Positions 6,178 through 20,397 of a DNA stretch of 26,496 nucleotides are shown here, piece after piece. Made by a program: the position numbers and the translations under genes. Positions within the stretch are counted from its first letter, which is position 1. The number at the start of each line of letters is the position of its first letter. The stretch comes from Baffinella frigidus (taxonomy: Eukaryota > Cryptophyceae > Cryptomonadales > Baffinellaceae): NCBI GenBank assembly GCA_026770585.1, contig MU646562.1:29385-55880 (forward strand). The letters run 5' to 3'. The notes under the pieces are model-generated. The model did not search any database, was not told where the DNA came from, and saw only the letters and a program-made list of their open reading frames with translations.

Positions 6178-6300
6178 TGGGGTTCAGGCTTTGGGGATTT
6201 TGGGTGTAGCTTTTAGGGTTTAGGGTTTAGGGATTAGGGTTTAGGGTTCAGGGTTCAGGGTTTAGGGTTTAGGGTTCAAGAGTTGGGGTTTAGGGTTTGG
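6178..6300. repeat. telomere-like tract (TTTAGGG/TTCAGGG variants)
   Basis: Degenerate array of ttagggtttaggg, ggttcaggg and similar heptamers, internal to the contig and not at an end. Short runs of the same kind follow at 6490-6580 and 6770-6840. Confidence 0.85.
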
Positions 6301-7657: not shown

Positions 7658-8142
7658 TGCGTCGCGCAGATCAGCGACGCATGCCTTCCGGTTTCGGTTT
7701 CGGACACGACAGGCCATCTATCGGCGAAACCGGACACGACAGGCCATCTATCGGGAAACCTCGTCTCAATTCGTGCCTCTTTCACCTTCCCCAACTCTTC
7801 ACAAAAACATTACGTTGAATTTCATGTGTTTCCGCGTGTTGAATTACCCGAGCGCTTCAAGGCGCGCGCGCGTCGAACAGATGAGCGACTCATGCCCCGC
7901 CTTTCGAAACGCCTCCCCCCCCTCCCCCCATCTCGCCGCCCCCGCCGCCGAGGGAGTAGTGGGGGAGGGTTGGGGGTGGGGGTATGTTGCGGGGGAGGGC
8001 TGGGCGGTTGGGCGTGAGGACTGGTCTGTTGCAGGGGAGGGTTGGGGGGGGAGGGGGGAGAGGGAGTCGTGAGAGGGTTGGGGGGGGAGGGGGGAGAGGG
8101 AGTCATCCCGGGGTGGCCAGGCTGCGACGTGCGTGCCTGGTT
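7658..8142. other. no gene recognised; local duplications
   Basis: A 24-bp phrase, cggacacgacaggccatcta then tcgg, is repeated in tandem at 7701-7755. At about 8020-8105 a ~42-bp G-rich unit (gggttgggggggggaggggg...) is repeated twice. The proline/glycine-rich frames do not look like genes. Confidence 0.5.
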
Positions 8143-8300
8143 TAGGGTTTAGGGTTTAGGGTTTAGGTTGTAGGGTTTAGGGCTTAGGGTTTAGGGTCTA
8201 GGGTTTAGGGTCTAGGGTTTAGAGTTTAGGGGTTTGGATTTTAGGGTGTAGGGTGTAGGGTGTAGGGTTTAGGGTTTAGGGTCTAGGGTCTAGGGTCGAG
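8143..8300. repeat. telomere-like tract (TTTAGGG with variants)
   Basis: Runs of gtttagggtttagggttta with gtctaggg and gtgtaggg variants over ~155 bp, internal to the sequence. Confidence 0.9.
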
Positions 8301-8671: not shown

Positions 8672-8888
8672 CCACTCGAGGCTGGAACAGGGAGCATTTT
8701 AAATGTGGGGTTGTTAAAGTTAGTAACAGTCGCGGGCAGGCTTGGTCACGTAGCTGCGGGATATCCCGCAGCTACGTGACCAAACGCCCCTATTTGTATG
8801 AAAATTACTACACCCCACTTTGTTTTCACTTGTAAAGGACTCGTCAAGTTATTTTTTAAAAAACAGTGACATTTCTAGGCTCGAGTGG
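8672..8888. mobile_element. family D foldback (CCACTCGAGGCT), copy 1
   Basis: Ends ccactcgaggctgg and ctaggctcgagtgg. At 8742-8783 is a perfect 42-bp palindrome with arm ttggtcacgt + agctgcgggat. Next to it is gaaaattactacacc, the core motif seen in other families. 217 bp, no coding capacity. Confidence 0.85.
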
Positions 8889-8920
8889 AAGGCGTTGTGA
8901 AGTATGAAGTTTGGGAAGGC

Positions 8921-8967
8921 CAGCGGGCGAGGTTGGCGGAGGCGATCTTTGCTGTTGGGTGCCCCCC
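8921..8967 (+). repeat. exon-like repeat, copy 2 (site without family D)
   Basis: gcgggcgaggttggcggagg then cgatctttgctgttgggtgc. This is an unoccupied version of the site that carries a family D element at 9483-9694. Confidence 0.5.
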
Positions 8968-9146
8968 CTGTTCGGGGCTTGGGGGTCAGGATCGTGGGTG
9001 TCAACGTTGGTGGCATCGTTGCTTGATGGAATCGTTGGTGGAATCGGTGGTGTGATCTTTGGTGTGATCGTCGGTGCTGTATCCAACACGTGTCCAAAAC
9101 GTGTCCAACACCCAGCACGTCTAAAACATCCTGGTACAAACACACG

Positions 9147-9251
9147 TATCCCTTAAGTGGCGAGCTGGTCAAATTTGACCCGCATGAGGTCCTAGGCAGG
9201 TCCTAGGACCCTACCGTAGGGCGTATGAGCCTACCCACCACTTGGGGGATA
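9147..9251. mobile_element. family A foldback, copy 2
   Basis: Ends tatcccttaagtggcgag and caccacttgggggata. The subterminal hairpin is ggtcaaatttgacc (9167-9180), and the core ggaccctaccgtagggcgta is present. Confidence 0.75.
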
Positions 9252-9482
9252 AACCGGCAGTCGCGTCCATATATATTAATATACCGCGGGGGAGGGGGGA
9301 GAAGGGAGGCCCAGTGCACTGCCAGCCGTGAAATTTCGTCCCAAGTCTCCACTAAGTCAATTTCCCCTGTAGCCACAGCCTTAAGTCAATATTGTGGGCC
9401 CGGGGCCCATTACAGTGTTTCAAACGGGTCTTTACTACACCCCTGAAATATTCTGGCTGGCAGTGCAGTGGGCGAGGTTGGC

Positions 9483-9694
9483 CCACTCGAGGCTGGAAGA
9501 GGGAGTATTTCAAATGTGGGGGTTGTAAATTTAGTACCAGTCACGGGCATGCTTGGTCACGTATCTCAAGTTATAACTTGAGATACGTGACCAAATGCCC
9601 CTATTTGTGTAAAAATTACTACACAATTCCTTTGTTTTCTTCACTTGTAAAAGAATGACTGTTTTAAAATGGTCACATTTCTAGCCTCGAGTGG
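9483..9694. mobile_element. family D foldback, copy 2, with an identifiable related empty site
   Basis: Ends ccactcgaggctgg and ctagcctcgagtgg, 212 bp. A perfect 42-bp palindrome occupies 9553-9594, arm ttggtcacgt + atctcaagtta. The left flank (ggcgaggttggc) and right flank (ccggaggcgatcatggct) join up as gaggttggcggaggcgatc in the related sequence at 8921-8967, so any target duplication is very short (1-2 bp). Confidence 0.85.
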
Positions 9695-10203
9695 CCGGAG
9701 GCGATCATGGCTGGGGGAAAACACCCGATCTGTTTTTTTGTCCCTAGGCTCTACGGTAGGCAATGCCGTAGGGACATAGGGGGGTTCCTGCGGATACGGT
9801 TACGAAAAAGGGCTACGGGGGGTTCCTACAGATATGGTTCCGGAAGGTTGAGGAGTCTCGGTACTCCGACCGGTCGGGGTCGGCGTTCCCCTCGCGAGGC
9901 ACAAACAATTTCATTTTCGATTGTTATTGAACCATTCCATGTTCGATTACCGTTTCATGTTCGATTGGTGTTGTTCTTTTGCAGGCAACCTTTCGTGTTC
10001 CAGTCTTTCCAGTGCCGGGTTTGCATCGGACGTTGTCTATCTGTCCCACGCCGGGAGAGGTGGGTTGGAGGGTTTCCAGCCAAACCCTAACCCTTCAGCC
10101 CAAAGGAGAGAAAGAGCGCAAAACCTCCCGCGATACATCGCAAGCCCGAAACAGAAACAATGCAAACACTGCACGCGAAACGGCGCACGCAATCACGTTT
10201 CCA
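9695..10203. other. mostly unassigned; family C-like fragment at 9745-9835
   Basis: taggctctacggtaggcaat, gggacataggggggttcctg and a second cggggggttcctacagatat are duplicated halves of the family C core. Beyond 9850 the frames are weak and I recognise no protein. gttcgattaccgtttcatg phrases repeat at 9935-9970. Confidence 0.45.
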
Positions 10204-10350
10204 AGGCGGGCCCGTTTCTTCAGGCCCATAGCCTTTCGTATCACTCAACTCAAGGCTCAAGGACCTCATTTAGGACTTGTATTGAGAGTAATAAAGAAGA
10301 AGAAGAAGACACACTAGAGAGATAATACTACTCTTTCTCTCCTTGTCTCT
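10204..10350 (+). mobile_element. retroposon-like (GAA)n-tailed repeat, copy 1
   Basis: Body: gggcccgtttcttcaggccc, gtatcactcaactcaaggct, caaggacctcatttaggact and tgtattgagagtaataaaga, followed by a GAA microsatellite (to about 10310) and a shared 3' flank acactagagagataatacta. Three more copies, all in the opposite orientation, lie at 19411, 24200 and 26132. AATAAA followed by a simple-repeat tail is typical of LINE-mobilised short elements. No clear RNA polymerase III box was recognised. Confidence 0.6.
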
Positions 10351-10429
10351 GCTCTCTCTCTCTCTAACTATCCCCTCTCTCTGCTAGTATCGCTCCCTCG
10401 CGAGGATTACCACAGGCGTGCCCCCCCAT

Positions 10430-10568
10430 CCCCCCAAACCGGGTGTGTCCAACACCCCACATCTAACACGCCCCGGTACAAACACACATATAAACTAAAA
10501 CACCCCGGTACAAACACACGTATAAACCAGAGGTCTCGTCCACAATAAAACGGGGGGTCTCGTCCACA
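10430..10568. repeat. direct duplication, copy 1 of 2
   Basis: ccccaaaccgggtgtgtcca, aacacgccccggtacaaaca, cacatataaactaaaacacc and ggtctcgtccaca are repeated almost exactly at 10790-10932. With the exon piece to its right this forms one half of a ~250-bp tandem duplication that was later split by a family A element. Confidence 0.85.
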
Positions 10569-10578
10569 AATAGCATTA

Positions 10579-10682
10579 TATCCCTTAATTGGCGAGGGGT
10601 CAAAATTGACCCCAAAGAGGTCCTAGGCAGGTCCTAGGGCCCTACAGTAGGGCGTATGGGCATACTCGCCACTTAAGGGATA
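10579..10682. mobile_element. family A foldback, copy 3, inserted at a TA
   Basis: Ends tatcccttaattggcgag and ctcgccacttaagggata; hairpin ggggtcaaaattgacccc at 10596-10613. The right flank ccgcggggtggttgcaggtg matches the duplicate at 10959, where ggta directly precedes ccgcgggg. The element thus sits at a TA, and TA is present at both of its ends. Confidence 0.85.
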
Positions 10683-10693
10683 CCGCGGGGTGG

Positions 10694-10730
10694 TTGCAGG
10701 TGTTCCCGTACAGGACGCGATGCTGGACGC
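10694..10730 (-). pseudogene. echo of the lipase RVLYGN exon, truncated
   Basis: On the - strand it reads QHRVLYGNTCNHPA, a copy of HHRVLYGNTCNDPA in the exon at 10960-11071. It breaks off after ~40 bp, where an inverted palindrome (10748-10785) starts. The ccgcg-gta junction is kept, but its GTA is now supplied by the inserted family A element. Confidence 0.7.
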
Positions 10731-10747
10731 GAGCGCCAGATAATACT

Positions 10748-10785
10748 GGTCACGTGATGCCCTTCGTCAAGGGCATCACGTGACC
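10748..10785. repeat. palindrome with 17-bp arms
   Basis: ggtcacgtgatgccctt-cgtc-aagggcatcacgtgacc. The right arm resembles the exon text gaagggcagcacgtgg at 11023-11038, which should follow the truncated echo here. It looks as if exon sequence was turned into a hairpin by snap-back copying. Confidence 0.8.
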
Positions 10786-10789
10786 CCCC

Positions 10790-10932
10790 CCCCACCCCCA
10801 AACCGGGTTTGTCCAACACCCCACATCTAACACATCCCGGTACAAACACACATATAAACTAAAACACCCCGGTACAAACACACGTATAAACCGGAGGTCT
10901 CGTCCACTAAACCGGGGGTCGCGTCCACAATG
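10790..10932. repeat. direct duplication, copy 2 of 2
   Basis: Second copy of 10430-10568 (aaccgggtttgtccaacacc ... ggtctcgtccactaaaccgg). It lies immediately downstream, in gene sense, of the lipase exon and is probably intron sequence. Confidence 0.85.
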
Positions 10933-10959
10933 AAGGGGAGGTCTGGTGGTGATAGGTAC

Positions 10960-11071
10960 CGCGGGGTCGTTGCAGGTGTTGCCGTAGAGGACGCGATGGT
11001 GGAAGGACGCGAGCGCGAGCGTGAAGGGCAGCACGTGGTTCAGCCCCATCTCCACCAGGAGCGGCCGGCAC
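10960..11071 (-). CDS. DUF676-type lipase, C-terminal-side exon
   Basis: Read on the - strand after a good acceptor (gcatcgcag, AG at 11073-11072) this gives CRPLLVEMGLNHVLPFTLAL then ASFHHRVLYGNTCNDPA, ending at a donor (gcg|gtacct). The family pattern at this place is a hydrophobic 'LL.M' helix, 'F..AL..F..RVLYAN' and 'D..V'; all are visible. It starts in phase 2 and ends in phase 0. The recognised 5' exons lie 9.7 kb away (20725-21320), and about 30-40 residues expected between AAPHLG and this exon were not found. It may belong to that gene or to a broken paralogue. Further 3' exons were not recognised. Confidence 0.65.
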
Positions 11072-11235
11072 CTGCGATGCCCCGCCAACCCGAACGCTGA
11101 AGCCACCCACATCATCCAATTTCGCGCGACGTAAGGCCCTTCAAGCCCGCCGCATTCCGGCGTCGCTTATTTTTTAAACTCCAAAAAGGGTGTCGAGAGT
11201 TTTAAAAACGGTACGTAACTTCCCAATTGCTCAAA

Positions 11236-11334
11236 CCGTGAGGGCTGGTGGTCATCTCAGAGTTGCGTGGGACTTGGAGCCATTTTAACCACGCGCTGCT
11301 AAAACATGACGGGGCCAGCCACCAACCCTCACGG
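11236..11334. mobile_element. foldback with CCGTGAGGGYTGGTGG ends
   Basis: ccgtgagggctggtgg faces ccaccaaccctcacgg. The same ends occur, reversed, around 16478-16657. About 100 bp. Confidence 0.6.
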
Positions 11335-11364
11335 TGGACTACGTGGTTTTCATGTTGAAAGGTG

Positions 11365-11450
11365 GCCCGTTCAACTTCACCTATTTCAGCCCTCTTGCGG
11401 TACCGGAAGACAACTAGTCACGTGACCCCTCGATTCCGGGGGTCTTGGTT
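11365..11450. repeat. dispersed repeat, homologous to 13040-13120
   Basis: cccgttcaacttcacctatt ... acaactagtcacgtgacccc. The hairpin acccctcgattccgggggt corresponds to atccctggatgccaggggt in the other copy. Confidence 0.5.
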
Positions 11451-11479
11451 CACGAGCGCCTCCGACACTAAGGTACCTT

Positions 11480-11641
11480 AATAGGGTAATGGACTAAAAA
11501 TGGGGTAGTTAGGCCTACGGCATTGCCTAGGACCTCCTACTGTAGGCCAAAATGCTAGGACTGTTTGGTCATAGGAGCCCTACGGCCTACGGTAGGCAAT
11601 TCCGTAGGCCTAACTACCCCATGTTTAGTCCATTATCCTAT
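11480..11641. mobile_element. foldback with ATAGGGTAATGGACTAAA ends
   Basis: aatagggtaatggactaaaa and gtttagtccattatccta are inverted, as are ggggtagttaggcctacggc and aggcctaactacccc inside them. The tip has the CCTACGGTAGG core. Confidence 0.8.
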
Positions 11642-11776
11642 GAAGGTAGGTCCGGTTATACATTTAGTATCGTAGGTCCTTTAGGAAGCACTTAGTTCGA
11701 GCCCTCTCTGGACGCCTTAAGTTGACGGTCCGACGTCATAAGTTCAATAAAAGTCTCTTCTCTTCTCTTCTCTTCT

Positions 11777-11813
11777 CGTCAGCCCCATCCCCACCAGCAG
11801 CGGGCGGCACCGA
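11777..11813 (-). pseudogene. echo of the lipase exon start
   Basis: On the - strand RCRPLLVGMGLT copies RCRPLLVEMGLN of the exon at 10960-11071, then runs into a TCTCT microsatellite. One small part of the exon only. Confidence 0.65.
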
Positions 11814-11977
11814 TTTTCGAGATCAGCCGATACGTGAATAATCCACAGTACCCTACGGTAGGCAAATCCGCCGGGACATATGCTCACGCAATTGTGTACC
11901 GGGGGTTTCAATTCTGGGCAAACGCCCGGACGTGGAAAGGACGAGGAGCAGCGTCTCACCGGGTCACGCACACTCGT

Positions 11978-12060
11978 TGAGTACCGCGAAATGAAACGTT
12001 GCGATGTGCGATGTGGACCGAGGTGACGGGCATCACGTGGTTCAGCCCCATCTCCATCCG
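11978..12060 (-). pseudogene. diverged echo of the lipase exon
   Basis: gcatcacgtggttcagcccc then atctccatcc (12029-12058) matches the exon closely; on the - strand it reads MEMGLNHVMPVTSVHIAHRN. The remainder (gtaccgcgaaatgaaacgtt, gcgatgtgcgatgtgg) is a poor copy of the RVLYGN part. Confidence 0.6.
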
Positions 12061-12069
12061 CCCACCCAC

Positions 12070-12231
12070 TCAGCCAGAGGCCTACCAAGCCATTTTCGGA
12101 CTCTGAGAGCCCGACTTTCCGTGACCTTGTCCGTAGGAACCCCCTATGTCCCTACGGGTTGCCTACCGTAGGGTCCTAGGTCTTATCGCTTAAGGGTTAT
12201 TCGAAATCCCTTGGAAGTCAGCTGTGTGGAC
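12070..12231. mobile_element. family C foldback, copy 4
   Basis: ggcctaccaagccattttcg at the left, aaatcccttggaagtcagct then gtgtgg at the right, with tgtccctacgggttgcctac between. The hairpin ggactctgagagccc has one mismatch. Confidence 0.7.
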
Positions 12232-12404
12232 ATGCGCATTGCAAGTTCCTGAGATCCGAGGAAGGCAGGCTGAAGAAATCTTGGGGTGTATTTATTGGAC
12301 GTGCATGGTAGTAATTTTGGACACGCCAGTACTAAATTGGTGACTTTTGATCCTGGGCAACAATCCTCATTCTCGGGAAGAAGTTGCGGCACCTGCGCAA
12401 GCAC

Positions 12405-12607
12405 CCACTCGAGGCTGGAAATGGAAATGCGACTATTTTAAAACAGGGATTCGTTTACAAGTGAAGAAAAAAAAGAAATGTGTGTAATTTTCACACAAAT
12501 GGGGGCGTTTGGTCACGTTGCGGGCGGAAATCACCACGAATGACCGTGACTGGTACTAAGTTTGACAGCCCCATATTTAAAATAGTCCCATTTCTAGCCT
12601 CGAGTGG
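12405..12607. mobile_element. family D foldback, copy 3 (decayed core)
   Basis: Ends ccactcgaggctggaaatgg and cccatttctagcctcgagtg g. It runs in the opposite orientation to copies 1-2. The central palindrome has lost symmetry (ggtcacgttgcgggcggaaa ... gaccgtgac). The bases AC occur on both sides of the ends. Confidence 0.8.
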
Positions 12608-12628
12608 ACGCGCCGCCAATCTAATCGC

Positions 12629-12783
12629 AAGTTGAATACGATCTGGCGACGAAAATTACTACACGGTTGTTTTTACTGTTACTGAATACGATCTGGCAAC
12701 GAAAATTCCTACACACTTGGTCCATACGAGTAATAGTAAAAACAATTGTGTAGTGATTTTCGTTGACAGATCGTGTTCAACTT
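12629..12783. mobile_element. foldback with AAAATTACTACAC core, copy 2
   Basis: Outer arms aagttgaatacgatctgg and cagatcgtgttcaactt; inner gcgacgaaaattactacacg faces ttgtgtagtgattttcgttg. A partial tandem copy of the left arm (ttactgaatacgatctggca) is included. Confidence 0.75.
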
Positions 12784-13196
12784 GAATACTCGTCTGGATG
12801 AAATCTTGGGTTACTCACGCGGTCGGGACTGGCGTCACTTCAATTTCATCTTGGAACATACCACAATCTGTCCACATAAAGAGGCGTAAGATAGCATCAT
12901 TGTATGTCTAAAATAGCATACACACCCTCATCTTCGGCGTCGGAAGCCTCAGATAGCGGGAGAGATTATGTCGTGTTCCGACATTAAATTCCCGTCAGTT
13001 CCAGCCCTCAAGCGCGTGAATCTTTTGTGTTGGTAATAGACCCGTTCAACTCCACCTATGTTAACCCTTTTCCAGTGAACAATTAGCCACGAGATCCCTG
13101 GATGCCAGGGGTCTAGTCATGGTCCGGAACCCGTGGGGCGCATGCCAGAGAAGCCGCGCGCCAAGAGGCGCGAAGAGGAGGGGGGGGGCGAGGGGG
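12784..13196. other. no gene recognised; repeat copy at 13040-13120
   Basis: 13040-13120 matches 11365-11450 (gttcaactccacctatgtta, hairpin ccctggatgccaggg). The last 80 bp before the gap are GC- and G-rich. Confidence 0.4.
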
Positions 13197-13836
13197 NNNN
13201 NNNNNNNNNNNNNNNNNNNNNNNNNNNNNNNNNNNNNNNNNNNNNNNNNNNNNNNNNNNNNNNNNNNNNNNNNNNNNNNNNNNNNNNNNNNNNNNNNNNN
13301 NNNNNNNNNNNNNNNNNNNNNNNNNNNNNNNNNNNNNNNNNNNNNNNNNNNNNNNNNNNNNNNNNNNNNNNNNNNNNNNNNNNNNNNNNNNNNNNNNNNN
13401 NNNNNNNNNNNNNNNNNNNNNNNNNNNNNNNNNNNNNNNNNNNNNNNNNNNNNNNNNNNNNNNNNNNNNNNNNNNNNNNNNNNNNNNNNNNNNNNNNNNN
13501 NNNNNNNNNNNNNNNNNNNNNNNNNNNNNNNNNNNNNNNNNNNNNNNNNNNNNNNNNNNNNNNNNNNNNNNNNNNNNNNNNNNNNNNNNNNNNNNNNNNN
13601 NNNNNNNNNNNNNNNNNNNNNNNNNNNNNNNNNNNNNNNNNNNNNNNNNNNNNNNNNNNNNNNNNNNNNNNNNNNNNNNNNNNNNNNNNNNNNNNNNNNN
13701 NNNNNNNNNNNNNNNNNNNNNNNNNNNNNNNNNNNNNNNNNNNNNNNNNNNNNNNNNNNNNNNNNNNNNNNNNNNNNNNNNNNNNNNNNNNNNNNNNNNN
13801 NNNNNNNNNNNNNNNNNNNNNNNNNNNNNNNNNNNN
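13197..13836. other. assembly gap, 640 N
   Basis: A run of Ns. The sequence on both sides is G-rich, which may have stopped reads. Reading frames crossing it are meaningless. A missing lipase exon could lie here. Confidence 1.
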
Positions 13837-14114
13837 TGGCACAGCCACCCGCGGGTGGGTGCTGCTCCACATTGGAGGAGAGAGAGGAAGGGGCTGCGTC
13901 GTATGCGTCGCATCGCTGATTGAAGATTGGGGGAGGGGAAGGGGGTGCGGCGGATTGGTGATTGGAGATTGGGGGAGAGGATGCCCCCAGGGCCGTGCGC
14001 ACCCGAGCAACCATCCCCCTCAGAACCCCCCCCCCCGCGGATCCTGGGTTGAGGGTTGAAGGTTGAGGTGAGTGCCGCAGACCCAGGGTGAGCACCGAGC
14101 ACGTTTGCCACACA

Positions 14115-14147
<33 letters not shown>

Positions 14148-14224
14148 GCTTTCTCTCTTTCTCTCGCACACACACATGCCCCTCAGAACCCCCCTCGGCG
14201 CCGACCCTGCCTCGCGCAAACCGT
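13837..14224. repeat. low-complexity and CT microsatellite, no gene
   Basis: gattgggggagaggatgc and gattgggggaggggaagg are local repeats (13920-13985). cccctcagaaccccccc occurs at 14018 and 14180 on either side of a TCTCT/CTTTC microsatellite at about 14115-14165. Confidence 0.7.
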
Positions 14225-14361
14225 CCACTAGCCCTCTGAGGTGGCCCAAATAGTGCTCTGGGGCATCGATTTGTCTTGGATCGAGGTCGGATCCGACCCC
14301 GATCCAAGGCAAATCGAAAATGCCCCAGAGCACTCTTTGAGCCACCTCCAAGGGCTAGTGG
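14225..14361. mobile_element. foldback with CCACTAGCCCT ends
   Basis: ccactagccctctgaggtgg and ccacctccaagggctagtgg face each other, as do gtgctctggggcatcgattt and aaatgccccagagcac. The tip gaggtcggatccgacccc is a palindrome. A fragment of one end (ccactagccctccgaagtgg) recurs at 17999. 137 bp. Confidence 0.85.
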
Positions 14362-14403
14362 TACGAGCGCGTGGTACGAGCGCGGTTAGTCATCTCGTAG
14401 GAT

Positions 14404-14567
14404 GAGGATCTCGTTTTAGATTCGTAAAGTGGCTCGTTCTGGTACAAATAATAAAACTAAAGGGGCTACACGTGACGTGTAGCCCCTTTAGTTTGTGACG
14501 TGTAGCCCCTTTAGTTTTATTATTTGTACCAGAACGAGCCACTTGACTAATCTAAAACCAGATCCTC
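14404..14567. mobile_element. foldback with internal tandem of its tip
   Basis: gaggatctcgttttagattc and taatctaaaaccagatcctc form the ends; gtggctcgttctggtacaaa pairs with tttgtaccagaacgagccac. The tip phrase gacgtgtagcccctttagtt occurs twice, after its inverted form. Confidence 0.85.
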
Positions 14568-14633
14568 TCACTATTAATCTCGTAGGGACGACCGCGGAAT
14601 GCGTGTGCGTCGACGGGAGCTTCGGGCGCGGGG

Positions 14634-14830
14634 TTTAAGGTTCAGGGTTCAGGGTTCAGGGTTCAGAGTTTACGATTTAGGTTTCAGGGTTCAGGGTGCA
14701 GGGTTCAGGGTTCAGGGTTCAGGGTTCAGGGTTCAGGGTTCAGGGTTCAGGGTTCAGGGCTCAGGGTTCAGGGTTCAGGGTTCAGGGTTCAGGGTTTACG
14801 GTTCAGGGCCAGGGTTCAGAGTTGACAGTT
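14634..14830. repeat. satellite of TTCAGGG heptamers
   Basis: Over twenty copies of ttcaggg or close variants. The + frame translates as GFRVQGS repeats, which I treat as satellite and not protein. Confidence 0.9.
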
Positions 14831-14879
14831 TAGATTTCAGGATGCGTAGGGTTAAGGTAGGGATGAGGCAGGGTTAACG

Positions 14880-15129
14880 GTGAGGGAGCACCTGGAGAAA
14901 CCACCCTCGGGGAGTCGCGCCCCCTCGAAGACCCCCCCCACGCGGCAAATCCAGCGTTTGGGCTCCCAGCGTCCGTGCCCGAGTGCGATTTCCTTTGATT
15001 CGGTTTGAATCGATTTGATTTGATGTGTGCGGATTCCTCCCCGCCCGCCTGGCCCGGTTGGGGCGGGAGTGTTCGGCCGCGGGCCTTGGTGGAGCGCCAG
15101 CCTGCGAGCGCGCTCGGGGGTCAGGGTTT
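14880..15129. other. no gene recognised
   Basis: GC-rich unique-looking sequence with ttgattcggtttgaatcgat at 14995. Frames such as RLARLGRECSAAGLGG are not recognisable. Confidence 0.35.
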
Positions 15130-15216
15130 AGGCCCAAAGTTGACGCATGTGTACCGCACACCCAGCATGTCAACTTACGAGTAGTCCGCGAGTCAACCCG
15201 ATGGAGGCAGAGCTGG
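15130..15216 (+). repeat. dispersed repeat with the TGTACCGCACACCCAG motif, copy 3
   Basis: aaagttgacgcatgtgtacc, gcacacccagcatgtcaact, tacgagtagtccgcgagtca and ggaggcagagct. It is followed directly by family A. Confidence 0.55.
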
Positions 15217-15321
15217 TATCCCTTAAGTGGCCAGTAGGCTCATACGCCCTACCGTAGGGCCCTAGGACCTGCCTAGGACCCCTTGGCCGACAAATGTGAC
15301 GGCATGGCCACTTAAGGGCTA
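15217..15321. mobile_element. family A foldback, copy 4
   Basis: Ends tatcccttaagtggccag and tggccacttaagggcta. Core catacgccctaccgtagggc then cctaggacctgcctagg. Confidence 0.8.
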
Positions 15322-15684
15322 GGGTTCAGGGTTCAGGGGTTCGGCTCTGCGCGTTGCGGCCGAGCAGTTCCGAGGGGTCAGCGTTCAAAACCGGTGGTGG
15401 AGCCATCATTGTCATTCCCCCCTGAGTTCGGCCTCCCGCTACCGAGCGAACTCGGCACACATAAGCCAGTCAGGCTCGAAAAACGACCTTGGCTTTCAAG
15501 TAAAAGTACTTGAAAACTTTAAGAACACTGCCAGGTTGGAGCTTTTGTATCAGTCAACTCAAGGCGAAAATCGATTTTCGAAGTACCCAATCTGGGTACC
15601 TCGTTTCTAAGTTGACAGATTTTGTGGGTGAATTGACTTTGACAAAAATCTCTGGATTTGCAGTGAAGTACGCCAAGCTGGCAG
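15322..15684. repeat. small palindromes, no gene
   Basis: ttcgattttcgaagtaccc at 15567 and gtacccaatctgggtac (15583-15599) are short hairpins; caagtaaaagtacttg is a 16-bp palindrome at 15497-15512. One phrase, tatcagtcaactcaaggc, resembles the retroposon body. Confidence 0.45.
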
Positions 15685-15842
15685 GCCTTGCTCGGATCGC
15701 GAGGGGGCAAACGCATCGCCTAATTTCTGGCTAGCCTTCCAAATGGGAAGTCTAGCGCCCACAACTTGAACACGACGCGAACCAATTTTTTGATTCGTAC
15801 CCGAATCAAAAAGATCCGTTTGCCCTCGCTATCCGAGCAAGG
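15685..15842. mobile_element. foldback with CCTTGCTCGGAT ends
   Basis: ccttgctcggatcgcgaggg and ccctcgctatccgagcaagg are inverted; ggcaaacg and cgtttgcc continue the pairing. gattcgtacccgaatc is an inner palindrome. 158 bp. Parts of the end (cttgctccgagcaagg) recur as a palindrome at 15941. Confidence 0.8.
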
Positions 15843-16107
15843 TCTACACCCTGAACCCAAGCGTTGCGGTTGCGGGTTGCAGGTTTGGGGAATTGGGGAT
15901 ACGCATGGTGTAGGGTGAATGGGGGGTTACGCATGGTGTCCTTGCTCCGAGCAAGGAACGTGCGCGCGCGCTACGGCCGAGCACTTCTCACCCTCCACAC
16001 CCCACCCTCCACACCTCGCAACCCTAAACCCCAAACCCCGCACCCCTAGACCCCAAACCCTAGAGGGAGTCTGGGCTGGAGAACGGGACGCAGCGCAGGG
16101 CACCTAC

Positions 16108-16246
16108 CCACACGGTGGGCTTCGAGGGTTTTGTTGGGCCTGCATTCCAGGGGGGGTACGTGACCAAACTGCACCATAAAATCTGTAAAGTTGATTGCAT
16201 CAAGGCAAGTTGACTTTTGATGAAAGGTTGGTAGTCCACCGTGTGG
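16108..16246. mobile_element. family G foldback, copy 2
   Basis: Ends ccacacggtgggcttcgagg and tagtccaccgtgtgg. Inner gcaccataaaatctgtaaag then ttgattgcatcaaggcaagt matches copy 1 at 3611-3748. Confidence 0.75.
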
Positions 16247-16920
16247 CCTGTGTGCGAAAACTGAAGAGAGTGACATCGGAGAGATGGCTAGACTCGGTAT
16301 GTGCGGACACAACGGGGTCAGGCATTGGAGCCGTTGTGTCCCAGAGGTGTTCCACACGATCCCTTAAGTTGATTTCTCGGGTTCGCAGTACAAATCCGGC
16401 AACTTTCGGCGAATCGCACCTGAAAAGGCTCGTAACCCTCGTTCCACACGAGAGCGGTGGTTCGGACGGGCCCGCCTCTCCACCCACCAACCCTCACGGC
16501 AGGACCAAATCGACTCATTTCGACCTGTTCCCCAACTTTGATTTTTGCACCAAGATTGGGACTTGAGTTGACACAGAGACCCCAGATCTGGGGTCTCTGC
16601 AAGGTGAATCTGAGGTCAGAAAATGGACGATTTGGTGTTTCCGTGAGGGTTGGTGGACCCCCGCATCTGATTCCGAGCGCTGGGCGCCCCGTGGGCAGGC
16701 TGCTGGTACACCTTGCGACGCGCGAGCATGCCTCACTCTGCCTCTGTTCATCGTTGGTCCTCAACATAAGGATACCGGGCGTTGATTGCCCTCCTATGTG
16801 GTACACTCCTATGGAGGGTAACCCTCGGTACACATGTGTCAACTTTTGGTGTGAACACGATGAGTCAACCCGACTGAGGCAGAGCTACGATGGGGCAGCG
16901 CACCGCCACCACCAACATCT
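16247..16920. repeat. foldbacks and palindromes, no gene recognised
   Basis: cccaccaaccctcacgg (16483-16499) and ccgtgagggttggtgg (about 16640) mark an inverted pair like 11236-11334. agagaccccagatctggggtctct (16577-16600, broken here as agagaccccaga + tctggggtctct) is a perfect palindrome. cacaacgg...ccgttgtg lies at 16308-16345. The long frames in both directions over 16195-16933 are explained by this symmetry. Confidence 0.55.
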
Positions 16921-16949
16921 ACCTCTGCCTTAGTTAATCTCGGCTCATC

Positions 16950-17256
16950 CAAGTGCTCGGCCGCAACTCAGAAGTGCTCGGCCGCAACTCAGTAAGTTGA
17001 CATCCCGGTTCTGTGGTACACAACCGTCAACATAGGAGCGTCGTGAGCGGCTTTTGCGCCCGGGAGACGACATTCTGAAGCCTGGAGACGAGCAGGGAGG
17101 AGATGCGCAGGGTGGGGCAGCGCACCGGCAGCGCTCGCCGCCCACGCGGCCAGCCCCGTGGCCGCCGCGTCGCTCGTCGTCGCAGCCCCGCGGGGCGACG
17201 GGGCGGTGCGCGGGGAGAGGAGGCTGGAGGAGGCGGAGGGCGATTGCATGGCCCTG
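16950..17256 (+). other. GC-rich stretch, possible exon, unidentified
   Basis: On the + strand one frame ends with VRGERRLEEAEGDCMALP just before a family D element. Short copies of that end occur at 17546 (tttcatggccatggtgatg) and 17645 (gtgcatggccctggtgatg), reading MAMVM and CMALVMP. This resembles the echo pattern around known exons, but no family is recognised and the - strand frames are equally long. aagtgctcggccgcaactca is repeated in tandem at 16951-16991. Confidence 0.25.
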
Positions 17257-17498
17257 CCACTCGAGGCTAGAAACGTGACTATTTTAAAACAGGGATTCCT
17301 TTATGAGTGAGGGGGGGGGGGAGGCGTGTAGTAATTTTGACACGAGTAGGGGCGTTGGGTCACGTCGCTGGCGGAATTTCGCAAGCTACGTGGCCAAGCC
17401 TGCCCGTGACCGCCAGCTACGTGACCACGCCTGCCCGTGACTGGTTCTAAATTCAACAAACCCACATTTAAAATGCTCCCTCTTCTAGCCTCGAGTGG
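17257..17498. mobile_element. family D foldback, copy 4
   Basis: Ends ccactcgaggctagaaacgt and cttctagcctcgagtgg. The central arms are imperfect (ggtcacgtcgctggcggaa / tttcgcaagctacgtggcc), and an extra partial arm (ccgccagctacgtgacc) follows. TG precedes and follows the element. Confidence 0.8.
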
Positions 17499-17669
17499 TG
17501 GGAGGGGGGGGGTGCGTTTTATTTTTCCTAGTGTAATTGTATTTCTCCGATTTCATGGCCATGGTGATGCGGGCGCATAGGCGGTTGGATCACTGATCTC
17601 AAGGCTTGAGAGGAACAAAGATTTCTGCCAGTGTTGTTGAATGTCTCCGAGTGCATGGCCCTGGTGATG

Positions 17670-17852
17670 CCACTCGAGGCTAGAAATGGTGACCACACGA
17701 GAACGCTAAGAGGGGCCTATTTAAAACACATGTGCTTTTAAAAGTGCGAATTTGTGTCCTTGAGTTTGCAGTCAGGAGGTTACTTTACCTTATCCGGGTA
17801 CAAATATTTTTAACCCCACATTTAAATAGGATGTTCTAGCATTCTCGAGTGG
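17670..17852. mobile_element. family D foldback, copy 5 (diverged)
   Basis: Ends ccactcgaggctagaaatgg and ttctagcattctcgagtgg. The interior has little of the usual core; cctatttaaa / tttaaatagg are kept. 183 bp. Confidence 0.7.
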
Positions 17853-18420
17853 GAGGCCTCAGACGTCCACACCCGCCCTCCAAAGTTCAACTTCAGGGTC
17901 AACGTTACTTGAACTTGAGAGGGCATCTGCTGGTATGAATTCGACAGGAGTTCACACTTTTCAAACTCCAGAGGTTTGAACTCCATCTTCGAGGTTTCCA
18001 CTAGCCCTCCGAAGTGGACCAACTCCCGATTTTAGCTTTCTCGATTTCAGGCGAGCTTTTGAGCCATTCGGGTCAATTCAGAATTGACGAACCAGGCCAC
18101 GGCAGGTCATAACTGGGAATTTCAGGACGCAACGGTTGGTTTCGTGGTACTAAATGGTACGTAGCCACCCGGCGACACGCAACTCCTCGTCCTTTCCACG
18201 TCCAATCCGAATACAAAATTTCCGGATCCGGGTACAGTTTTTTAAAAAGACTTGTATCCTGAAATTCCGATTCATGACCTGGCGTGGAAAGTCGGCCTGA
18301 AAGCCAAAATGCTAACAAGGGGGTTGTTTTCACTGCAGAAGGCTGGTGGTTAGGGTTTGGGCTCTGGAAGCTGGCATCGCGTTGGACGAGCTGTTTCATG
18401 GCGCCCCCCATCATACGTAG
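17853..18420. other. foldback-rich sequence, no gene recognised
   Basis: tccaaagttcaacttcaggg, tcaaactccagaggtttgaa and ccactagccctccgaagtgg (an end of the 14225 family) occur. aggccacggcaggtcataac / ccgattcatgacctggcgtg with aatttcaggacgc / tatcctgaaattcc form a long imperfect hairpin at 18090-18290. Confidence 0.45.
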
Positions 18421-18516
18421 GATTCTAGCTCTGTCTCAGTCTGTTTGGGCCCACCAATTCGGTGAGCCCGGGCTCTTTCTGGCCCCAAGGTTGACGGGTG
18501 TGTACCGCGAACCCAG
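18421..18516 (+). repeat. dispersed repeat with the TGTACCGC motif, copy 4
   Basis: ctagctctgtctcagtctgt, gcccaccaattcggtgagcc and gttgacgggtgtgtaccgcg match 5114-5200. Family C joins it without a gap. Confidence 0.55.
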
Positions 18517-18678
18517 CCACACAGCGGGCTTCAAAGGGATTTTCGGGCTCTGAGAGCCCGAGTGTCCGTTACCTTGTCCGTAGGAACCCCCCCGATGTCC
18601 CTACGGATTGCCTACCGTAGGGTCCTAGCTCTTATCGCTTAAGGGTTATTCAAAATGCCTTGGAAGTCCGGTGTGTGG
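18517..18678. mobile_element. family C foldback, copy 5
   Basis: Ends ccacacagcgggcttcaaag and ttggaagtccggtgtgtgg, 162 bp. The hairpin tcgggctctgagagcccga lies at 18543-18561; the core attgcctaccgtagggtcct is intact. Confidence 0.85.
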
Positions 18679-18799
18679 CATGTCAAGTTAGGAACAGTGG
18701 GTGAACCTGGCGTCGCGCAGGAAGAGTTGTTTCATGGTGCGCCCCCCGTAGGGCGCGTCAAGAAAGTCCACCTGCATACACAGTACAGGCTTGTAATCA

Positions 18800-18941
18800 G
18801 GGGACATGTTTAATTTAAAAGAAAATGGATCCCTATTTGTTCATAGGAGTTGGACGAAGATTAATTAGGGCCCTAGGTAAATTTAATCAGGACCAGAGCC
18901 CGGTTTGATAGGCTACTTTCTTTTACTTTAAACATGTTCTC
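18800..18941. mobile_element. foldback with GGGACATGTTTAA ends
   Basis: ggggacatgtttaatttaaa then agaaaatgg faces ggctactttcttttacttta then aacatgttctc. The centre has ttaattagggccctaggtaa. Single copy. Confidence 0.65.
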
Positions 18942-18963
18942 GGATGAGTTTACTAGCGAAGAT

Positions 18964-19042
18964 GGACACACACCGCCCTAGGGTCCTACCGTATGGCTAT
19001 GCCTAGGAGCATAGGACCACCCTAGGGACGGTGTGTGTCCTT
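18964..19042. mobile_element. small foldback with GGACACACACCG ends
   Basis: ggacacacaccgccctaggg and ccctagggacggtgtgtgtc c are inverted. The tip ggtcctaccgtatggctatg is a core variant close to that of family H. Confidence 0.8.
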
Positions 19043-19064
19043 ATGCGCGAGTAATGAATGTAGG

Positions 19065-19176
19065 GAGTTTGGGAATTTGTGGGCAGGAGTGGCGAGTAAT
19101 GAACGTGGGGCTGGGGTGGGCGGGGCGTTGCTGAAATGTGTGGCTGGTGTGGGCGGGGAGGGGGTGCACCTTCATA
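19065..19176 (+). pseudogene. inverted echo of the lipase 5' exon
   Basis: gggagtttgggaatttgtgg, gcaggagtggcgagtaatga and acgtggggctggggtgggcg copy, on the opposite strand, the start of the exon at 20915-21320; ggggagggggtgcacctt ends it (GEGVHL in translation). A ~30-bp partial repeat is inserted in the middle. Confidence 0.7.
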
Positions 19177-19179
19177 TGC

Positions 19180-19279
19180 GGAAACAGAATAAAAATACTG
19201 TTTTTGGCCACGCGTAAAGTTGATTATCCCCTTGAAAACGGGCAGAATGGCCAAAAACAGTATTTTTATACTGTTTCCG
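19180..19279. mobile_element. foldback with GGAAACAG...ATACTGTTTTTGGCCA arms
   Basis: ggaaacagaataaaaatact then gtttttggcca pairs with tggccaaaaacagtattttt then atactgtttcc. About 30-bp arms, single copy. Confidence 0.8.
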
Positions 19280-19410
19280 GAGATAAACCTTCAGGTGGAC
19301 TGCATAGACATGACAGGATGACCTGCGACTCGCTCAAAAAAAAAATATTATTACCCGATATTTCGACCAGCTTGCTGGTCGACATTTCCCGGGGAAGCCC
19401 CCTGTGGCTT

Positions 19411-19516
19411 CCTCTTCTTCTTCTTTATTACTCTCGATACAGGTCCTACATGAGGCCCTTGAGCCTTGCGTTGAGTGATACAAAAGTCTATGAGCCTTAA
19501 GAAACGGGCCCGCCTC
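19411..19516 (-). mobile_element. retroposon-like (GAA)n-tailed repeat, copy 2
   Basis: cctcttcttcttctttatta, ctctcgatacaggtcctaca, tgaggcccttgagccttgcg, ttgagtgatacaaaagtcta and aagaaacgggcccgcc: reverse complement of 10204-10310. Upstream, gatatttcgaccagcttgct then ggtcgacattt is a separate hairpin; a similar ccgacatttcgaccag occurs at 24742. Confidence 0.65.
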
Positions 19517-19550
19517 AGAGACAAGAGCTATAATGGCCCACTGTGTGGAT

Positions 19551-19957
19551 CCATTCGAGGCTGGAAGAGGGAGTATTTCAAATGCGGGGTTGTCGAATTT
19601 GTAGAGCGGGTCTCTGATGACTTGACACCTTTTGGGGGTCAAAAAACTTCTAAACTTTCAAACTCGTTGAGTGAACTCACCAGAAATTTACTACAGCGTA
19701 AATTTCGCCGTGGTAAATTTCAGGTGAGTTGACTAAAAGAGTTGGGAAGTTTGGAAGTTTTTCGACCCCCAAAAGGTGTCAACTAATCAGAGGCCCGCTC
19801 TACCAGTCACGGGCAAGGCTTGGTCACGTTACTGACAGATATCTGTCAGTGACGTGACCAACGCGACTATTTGTGTGAAAGTTTCTAGGTCCTACACCCC
19901 CCTTCACTTTTAAAGGTTTCTGTGTTTTAAAATAGTCACGTTTCTAGCCTCGAGTGG
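19551..19957. mobile_element. family D foldback, copy 6, interrupted by another element
   Basis: Ends ccattcgaggctggaagagg and cgtttctagcctcgagtgg. The near-perfect palindrome is at 19820-19861, arm ttggtcacgt + tactgacagat, one mismatch. A 197-bp foldback is inserted at 19604. Without it the element would be ~208 bp, like its relatives. AT occurs on both sides of the ends. Confidence 0.85.
19604..19800. mobile_element. nested foldback with TA target duplication
   Basis: Arms gagcgggtctctgatgactt then gacaccttttgggggtcaaa and ttcgacccccaaaaggtgtc then aactaatcagaggcccgctc. TA stands on both sides (19602-19603, 19801-19802), and the interrupted family D text resumes exactly (…tttgTA|ccagtcacgggc). 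TA duplication is characteristic of Tc1/mariner-type transposition. Confidence 0.85.
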
Positions 19958-20001
19958 ATGAAACGCGCTCTGCGAACAAGTTCGATTTCACAGGGACACA
20001 G

Positions 20002-20124
20002 GGAAACAGTTTTAACCAGTCGATTCAATGAAAATTACTGCACGAATGCTTTAATATTACTAGTAAAACTCATTATGTGTAGTGAATTTCATTGCCAGAA
20101 AGTTTTGAATCAAAACTGTTTTCC
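20002..20124. mobile_element. foldback with AAAATTACTRCAC core, copy 3
   Basis: ggaaacagttttaaccagtc then gattcaatgaaaattactgc faces tgtgtagtgaatttcattgc and tttgaatcaaaactgttttc. The outer arms differ from the copies at 4176 and 12629. Confidence 0.75.
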
Positions 20125-20169
20125 TACGAGGTTCTGCCTCGAGACGTCTCGATCCTGCGAACGAGCTGG

Positions 20170-20397
20170 CCACTCGAGGCTAGAAATGGGACTATTTTAA
20201 ATGTGGGGTTGTTAAATTTAGTACTAGTCACGGGCAGGCTTGGTCACGTTGCTCAAGGAATTCCTTGAGCAACGTGACCAAACGCCCATATTTGTGTGAA
20301 AATTACTGCACACTTTGTTTTCTCTTCACTTGTAACAGAATCGCTGTTTGAAAATAGAGACACTTCTGAAAATAGGGAGACTTCTGGGCTCGAGAGG
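20170..20397. mobile_element. family D foldback, copy 7
   Basis: Left end ccactcgaggctagaaatgg; right end gggctcgagagg. The perfect 42-bp palindrome lies at 20240-20281, arm ttggtcacgt + tgctcaaggaa. aaaattactgcacac is present. Near the right end aaaatagagacacttctg and aaaatagggagacttctg are tandem. Confidence 0.85.

What the first reader, a model, noticed from the sequence alone, without database searches (positions are those of the whole stretch)
8672..20397. Family D carries a central palindrome whose sequence changes between copies while both arms stay complementary
Four copies have a 42-bp palindrome at the same place (8742-8783, 9553-9594, 19820-19861, 20240-20281). The outer 10 bases of each arm are constant (ttggtcacgt). 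The inner 11 are agctgcgggat, atctcaagtta, tactgacagat and tgctcaaggaa: largely different, yet the opposite arm is the exact complement in three copies and has one mismatch in the fourth. Independent mutation would destroy this. Either the hairpin is selected for, or the tip is cut, replaced and re-copied from one arm. The second is known in principle as template-switch correction of quasi-palindromes.
Basis: partly seen in the sequence, partly recalled or inferred. Interest (0 to 1): 0.85.

Follow-up and report, generated by a model that had tools for sequence, protein, structure and literature searches.

The report
Mobile element with co-varying central palindrome
A small mobile DNA element in what is probably an Arctic cryptophyte alga carries a 42-base mirror sequence at its centre whose letters differ from copy to copy while its two halves usually still match, most likely because DNA copying rewrites one half from the other.

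Summary
Four copies of a ~210-bp MITE-like element (TIR CCACTCGAGGCT) carry a 42-bp zero-spacer palindrome where stated: 10 constant outer pairs, 11 variable inner pairs, one broken pair in 84. Inner arms are related (27-64% identical), not random. Two further copies have damaged palindromes (12405, 17257), and a distant relative (17670-17852) has none. Predicted proteins read through the element link it to the cryptophyte Baffinella frigidus.
Best reading: palindrome arms homogenised by local inverted copying (template switching). Inner pairs change about 2.7 times faster than non-TIR flanks, unlike slow compensatory selection; in the four intact copies all changes but one are matched on both arms, including central pairs that a hairpin loop would not need; TIR arms far apart are not homogenised; and an unrelated template-switch-like palindrome lies at 10748-10786. 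Against it: the outer arms are more conserved than flanks, one inner variant recurs in other copies, and rearrangements also occur outside the palindrome. Arm homogenisation is known; I found no report of it in a MITE in my searches. Only six DNA copies were available; the genome could not be searched.

The parts
8672..8888 (+). Family D copy 1, perfect 42-bp palindrome
   Evidence: TIR match; profile match 209.7 bits (one of the five copies that built the profile)
8742..8783 (.). Central palindrome, inner arm AGCTGCGGGAT
9483..9694 (+). Family D copy 2, perfect palindrome
   Evidence: 217.6 bits (in the profile); RNA fold of this copy -93.9 kcal/mol, z -12.2
9553..9594 (.). Central palindrome, inner arm ATCTCAAGTTA
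12405..12607 (-). Family D copy 3; inner part of one palindrome arm missing, with clustered substitutions beside the gap; flanking dinucleotide AC/AC
   Evidence: 192.1 bits (in the profile); alignment
17257..17498 (-). Family D copy 4; 31-bp tandem duplication running from the flank into one palindrome arm; remaining arms mismatched; flanking dinucleotide TG/TG
   Evidence: (two pieces, in the profile)
19551..19957 (+). Family D copy 5, interrupted by a 203-bp nested foldback insert (19601-19803); flanking dinucleotide AT/AT
   Evidence: (two pieces, not in the profile)
19820..19861 (.). Central palindrome, inner arm TACTGACAGAT, one mismatched pair
20170..20397 (+). Family D copy 6, perfect palindrome, damaged right TIR and an 18-bp tandem repeat near the right end (20349-20386)
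   Evidence: 216.0 bits (in the profile); TIR mismatches; tandem repeat
20240..20281 (.). Central palindrome, inner arm TGCTCAAGGAA
17670..17852 (-). Distant relative: ends match model 1-57 and 157-211, no central palindrome
   Evidence: 9.8 and 13.4 bits (E 0.0036 and 0.00028); no palindrome listed there
10748..10786 (.). Unrelated palindrome, 17-bp arms, 4-nt loop; looks like an inverted copy inserted into a duplicated segment (template-switch-like footprint)

Best explanation
Family D is a non-autonomous DNA transposon (MITE-like, ~210 bp, TIR of about 32 bp, perhaps a 2-bp target duplication) with a central 42-bp palindrome. A base change in one arm is copied into the other arm, or erased, by local inverted copying (template switching between arms, probably between strands or at an opened cruciform) during replication or repair. 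The palindrome therefore stays near-perfect while its sequence drifts. Some rearrangements of the palindrome (12405, 17257, perhaps P0014) may be failed processing. Shown: co-variation, faster inner change, unhomogenised TIRs, two damaged copies. Inferred: the copying step, its enzymes, that it acts on inserted copies, and that the damage comes from it.
For: Two-sided changes in 9 of 21 pairs, none one-sided while still pairing. 18 changes in 11 inner columns against 51 in 83 non-TIR flank columns, p 0.0008. The central two pairs, unpaired in the predicted DNA hairpins of the four intact copies, are complementary in 5 of 5 aligned copies although both vary. With terminal flank branches of 0.09-0.14, independent arms would give 17.3 broken pairs in the four intact copies, or 9.4 if half of the branch is post-insertion (P of at most 1: 0.0005); observed 1. 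TIR arms of the six copies, 139-343 bases apart, differ at 5-11 of 32 positions, ungapped. A separate template-switch-like inverted insertion lies in the window. Homogenisation of short inverted repeats by template switching is established (PMC8604942, abstract and introduction read; PMC8794818, abstract and two sections read).
Against: Only six DNA copies, and the four intact ones were chosen for being intact; 17257 has 5 of 21 pairs broken by one-sided changes. How much of each branch is post-insertion is unknown: at one quarter, P of at most 1 broken pair is 0.04. The flank tree is weakly supported (0.64, 0.64, 0.94). The outer pairs change less than flanks (4 changes in 20 columns, p 0.011), which simple homogenisation does not predict and selection would. 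Unbiased copying alone does not raise the inner rate; extra mutagenesis of the tip must be added. The c9483 inner variant recurs in P0015 and nearly in P0013, so part of the change predates insertion. 4 of 147 flank windows of 11 columns change as much as the inner arm. TIR differences may be old differences of the source element, so that control shows absence of homogenisation, not decay. Indels also occur outside the palindrome (20170, 8672, 12405, 19551), so the palindrome is not shown to be a hotspot.
Confidence: 0.54

Rival explanations
1. Selection in active source elements keeps a dyad-symmetric or hairpin-forming centre (for a transposase or host factor, or a transcribed foldback RNA) without caring about the inner letters; copies are recent enough to show intact arms.
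For: Outer pairs are more conserved than flanks. The one whole element that was folded as RNA is very stable (copy 9483, z -12.2). Inner variant of c9483 recurs in P0015 and nearly in P0013. The one broken pair among the intact copies is U-G on the + strand.
Against: Compensatory evolution should be slower than neutral flanks (general knowledge, not tested here), but the inner arm is faster. Central loop pairs stay complementary. A weak relative with D-like ends lacks the palindrome, though it may have lost it. Terminal flank branches are 0.07-0.14.
Confidence: 0.28
2. Subfamily inheritance only: several source elements with different perfect palindromes, each made once by an inverted duplication, gave rise to these copies, which are young.
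For: c9483-like inner residues recur with the same upstream residue H instead of Q in P0013 and P0015.
Against: Terminal branches of 0.07-0.14 and TIR ends with 1, 1 and 3 mismatches in 12 in c8672, c19551 and c20170 suggest that these copies are not young. The nearest flank pair (c9483, c12405, 0.86) has inner identity of only 0.27 (the c12405 arm is inferred from its right side).
Confidence: 0.14
3. Assembly artefact.
For: The window has a 640-base N gap.
Against: The gap is at 13197-13836, away from the six copies. Predicted proteins from other contigs can be encoded by near-palindromic DNA (P0012 with 1 broken pair, P0011 with 2), but this test is weak for P0011.
Confidence: 0.03

Closest known systems
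Quasi-palindrome correction by template switching (Ripley-type mutation)
   Same: Extends identity between arms of a short inverted repeat in one event and leaves multi-base two-sided changes
   Different: Here inferred from dispersed copies of one mobile element, with a variable core between constant outer arms; no event was observed directly
Template switching creating and maintaining RNA hairpins (PMC8794818; abstract and two sections read)
   Same: Multi-base compensatory changes explained by DNA copying; inverted insertions that create perfect stems
   Different: That work concerns RNA genes under selection and calls its evidence for stem maintenance circumstantial; here no RNA gene is known and the zero-spacer centre also co-varies
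MITEs / foldback elements
   Same: Short, TIR-bounded, repeated element; the one copy folded whole forms a stable foldback
   Different: A central palindrome with variable sequence; no MITE described by this trait was seen in the listings (on the TIR sequence, found no paper)

Membership tests
MITE (non-autonomous DNA transposon) | Short element with terminal inverted repeats | tested here: met
   About 203-242 bases without the nested insert; TIR CCACTCGAGGCT or a close form at both ends of 6 copies, 0-3 of 12 positions mismatched between ends
MITE (non-autonomous DNA transposon) | Target-site duplication | tested here: inconclusive
   Identical dinucleotides AC, TG, AT in 3 of 6 copies; the other 3 differ (flanks)
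MITE (non-autonomous DNA transposon) | Multiple copies at unrelated sites | tested here: met
   6 copies in 26 kb, with different 10-base flanks
MITE (non-autonomous DNA transposon) | Autonomous partner with matching TIR and transposase | not tested
Template-switch homogenised inverted repeat | Two-sided multi-base changes that keep arms complementary | tested here: met
   9 of 21 pairs in five copies; met in the four intact copies, not in 17257
Template-switch homogenised inverted repeat | Arms close together homogenise, distant inverted repeats do not | tested here: met
   TIRs differ at 5-11 of 32, ungapped; indels inflate the upper values, and source-element differences are included
Template-switch homogenised inverted repeat | Parent-to-child event seen at an orthologous site | not testable with these tools
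   No second strain or orthologous insertion available

The most novel reading that the evidence does not exclude
The palindrome's tip is a self-rewriting, hypermutable segment: each element copy repeatedly opens or copies its cruciform tip, so dead transposon copies act as independent recorders of template-switch events and produce strong base-pair co-variation without any selection on structure.
Probability: 0.3. Interest if true: 0.72.

Novelty: new variant of a known kind. Interest (0 to 1): 0.52.

Why it matters
Co-variation is usually taken as the strongest sign of a selected RNA structure. A dispersed, apparently non-functional element in which DNA copying alone yields such co-variation would be a natural negative control for that inference, and it would let the rate and direction of template switching be measured across many genomic copies.

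Tried and rejected
Exact palindrome pattern in viral contigs and genome contigs: 0 matches each. TIR pattern: 1 and 39 stretches; a profile search of these 40 loci (304,720 bases) gave nothing below E 0.098 and a BLAST of the window against them gave nothing at 1e-3, so they are taken as chance. A stricter TIR pattern found 0 matches even in the window: badly chosen. Plasmid search with 8900-14000: none. Rfam at gathering scores and tRNA: none. The palindrome at 10746-10787 was first counted as a possible further copy; its shared outer 8 bases look coincidental. Replaced-tip idea: no exact match of any inner 11-mer elsewhere in the window; one-mismatch hits at 934, 2931, 18680 and 22184. Protein-level palindrome test on two outside copies: P0011 at least 2 broken pairs (3.5% of random inner sequences do as well, 19% of shuffles), P0012 at least 1 (0.3% and 4.6%): suggestive only. 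P0013, P0014 and P0015 were not put to that test. P0014 and P0015 have weak E-values (0.42 and 1.9) and were accepted by eye. P0013 reads LKL after YNL, so its right arm is not followed in translation.

Prior print: searches (listings only; two returned no paper; one search listed all 7 that it found, the others only their top rows) gave no MITE described with a co-varying central palindrome. 'introner' with 'cryptophyte' gave 5 papers, none on Baffinella by title. Most subscription papers are not held.

Full report
What is there. The window (25,856 bases without N, 54.7% GC, one 640-base gap) is eukaryotic: an ORF on the minus strand matches DUF676 serine esterase (E 3e-19) and another weakly (E 0.036, below cut-off). 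Of the 9 proteins found with a typed join of two pieces of this gene, the only one whose name gives an organism is from the cryptophyte Rhodomonas salina (59% identity). Three predicted proteins that run through the repeat family discussed here are named Baffinella frigidus (P0011, P0013, P0014). The published Baffinella sp. CCMP2293 assembly is 534.5 Mbp, 53.9% GC and 41.1% repeats (PMC9756366, passages seen). The window is therefore probably from Baffinella or a near relative; this was not shown directly, because the window's own genome could not be searched.

The family. A profile built from five copies finds these five and a sixth: 8672-8888 (+), 9483-9694 (+), 12405-12607 (-), 17257-17498 (-, two pieces), 19551-19957 (+, two pieces around a 203-base nested foldback insert) and 20170-20397 (+). 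All bear the TIR CCACTCGAGGCT or a close form, extended to about 32 bases. Three of six are flanked by identical dinucleotides (AC, TG, AT), which suggests a 2-bp target duplication. A more distant element at 17670-17852 aligns weakly and only to the two ends of the profile (positions 1-57, 9.8 bits; 157-211, 13.4 bits) and has no palindrome.

The palindrome. Four copies have a 42-bp palindrome at the stated coordinates, three perfect and one with one mismatch. The outer ten pairs are constant in these four; the inner eleven vary but are homologous (27-64% identity). On five aligned copies (with 17257) 100 of 105 cells pair, 9 of 21 pairs have two-sided changes and none vary on one side while still pairing; the 5 unpaired cells are in 17257. 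0 of 500 shuffles reach the observed values. The two central pairs, which form the 4-base loop in the predicted hairpins of the four intact copies, are complementary in 5 of 5 copies, although both pairs vary. This points to symmetry at the DNA level rather than to a folded strand.

The damaged copies. In 12405 the inner part of one arm is missing, with substitutions clustered beside it; in 17257 a 31-bp tandem duplication reaches into one arm and the remaining arms are mismatched. P0014 also appears to lack one arm (by eye). Rearrangements are not confined to the palindrome, however: 20170 has an 18-base tandem repeat near its right end, 8672 and 12405 have small insertions in the right half, and 19551 has the nested insert and a small deletion. 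A hotspot is thus not shown.

Rates. On the flank tree (support 0.64, 0.64, 0.94) the inner arm has 18 changes in 11 columns (1.64 per site) against 51 in 83 non-TIR flank columns (0.61), p 0.0008 with columns taken as independent; the outer arms have 4 in 20, p 0.011 in the other direction. I left out the TIR columns and, after seeing the alignment, a poorly aligned right-hand block (18 columns, 25 changes); the inner arms of the two damaged copies were inferred. With all 157 full flank columns (99 changes, 0.63 per site), 4 of 147 windows of 11 columns changed at least as much as the inner arm, and 0 of 20,000 random sets of 11 columns did. Terminal branches are 0.07-0.14 substitutions per site. 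If arms mutated independently over these branches, the four intact copies should show 17.3 broken pairs; over half of them 9.4 (P of at most 1: 0.0005); over a quarter 4.9 (P 0.04). One is seen, but the four were chosen for being intact. The TIR arms of the six copies, 139-343 bases apart, differ at 5-11 of 32 positions without gaps, so there is no sign of homogenisation over that distance; part of this difference may be inherited from the source element.

Interpretation. Selection for pairing normally slows change, because two hits are needed (general knowledge); the inner arm is faster than its surroundings. A mutational process that copies one arm onto the other explains two-sidedness, near-perfect Watson-Crick pairing and the dependence on closeness of arms; the higher rate needs, in addition, mutagenic copying near the tip. 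Such homogenisation is established for short inverted repeats (PMC8604942, abstract and introduction; PMC8794818, abstract, 'Footprints of CMs' and Discussion; PMC3820800, start of abstract in a listing). The same window holds what looks like an independent footprint: relative to the duplicate at 10957-11019 (86% identity), the segment at 10748-10786 has gained a ~25-base insert that is mostly the inverted copy of the adjacent sequence, forming 17-bp arms. A third, weaker copy near 12000-12050 shows the same gap in the MAFFT alignment but was not found by BLAST. What homogenisation does not explain is the sharp, highly conserved outer arm, for which selection in active elements, or repair by other copies, has to be added.

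Inheritance. The inner variant of c9483 reads ISSYNL in translation; P0015 has the same residues and P0013 differs at the first, and both share the H (not Q) just upstream. P0015 has F for Y just after, where the right arm passes from inner to outer part, and P0013 does not follow the right arm. So some inner variants are shared by subfamilies, and part of the change predates insertion. This lowers, but does not remove, the argument that the arms are maintained in place.

Verdict. Real and unusual; mechanism probably of a known kind; the mobile-element setting was not seen in print in the searches listed under tried and rejected. The decisive data are the other genomic copies.

Noticed in passing
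10684-10830, 10960-11110, 11960-12110: Duplicated segment that overlaps an ORF with a weak DUF676 match; the first copy has gained an inverted copy that forms a palindrome; the third copy is only weakly similar.
   Followed up: partly
14427-14545: Long foldback: 53-base arms with 4 mismatches and a 23-base tandem duplication (14472-14517) near the centre.
   Followed up: no
19601-19803: 203-base foldback element nested inside a family D copy, with inverted ends GTAGAGCGGG/CCCGCTCTAC.
   Followed up: no
8139-8296, 6180-6298, 14631-14823: Interstitial tandem arrays of 7-base units like TTTAGGG, in several variants.
   Followed up: no
P0011 (protein named Baffinella frigidus, no window coordinates): An RPB5 gene model runs from the RPB5 domain into a family D element, so the element may lie just inside an intron; whether it acts as an introner was not tested.
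   Followed up: no
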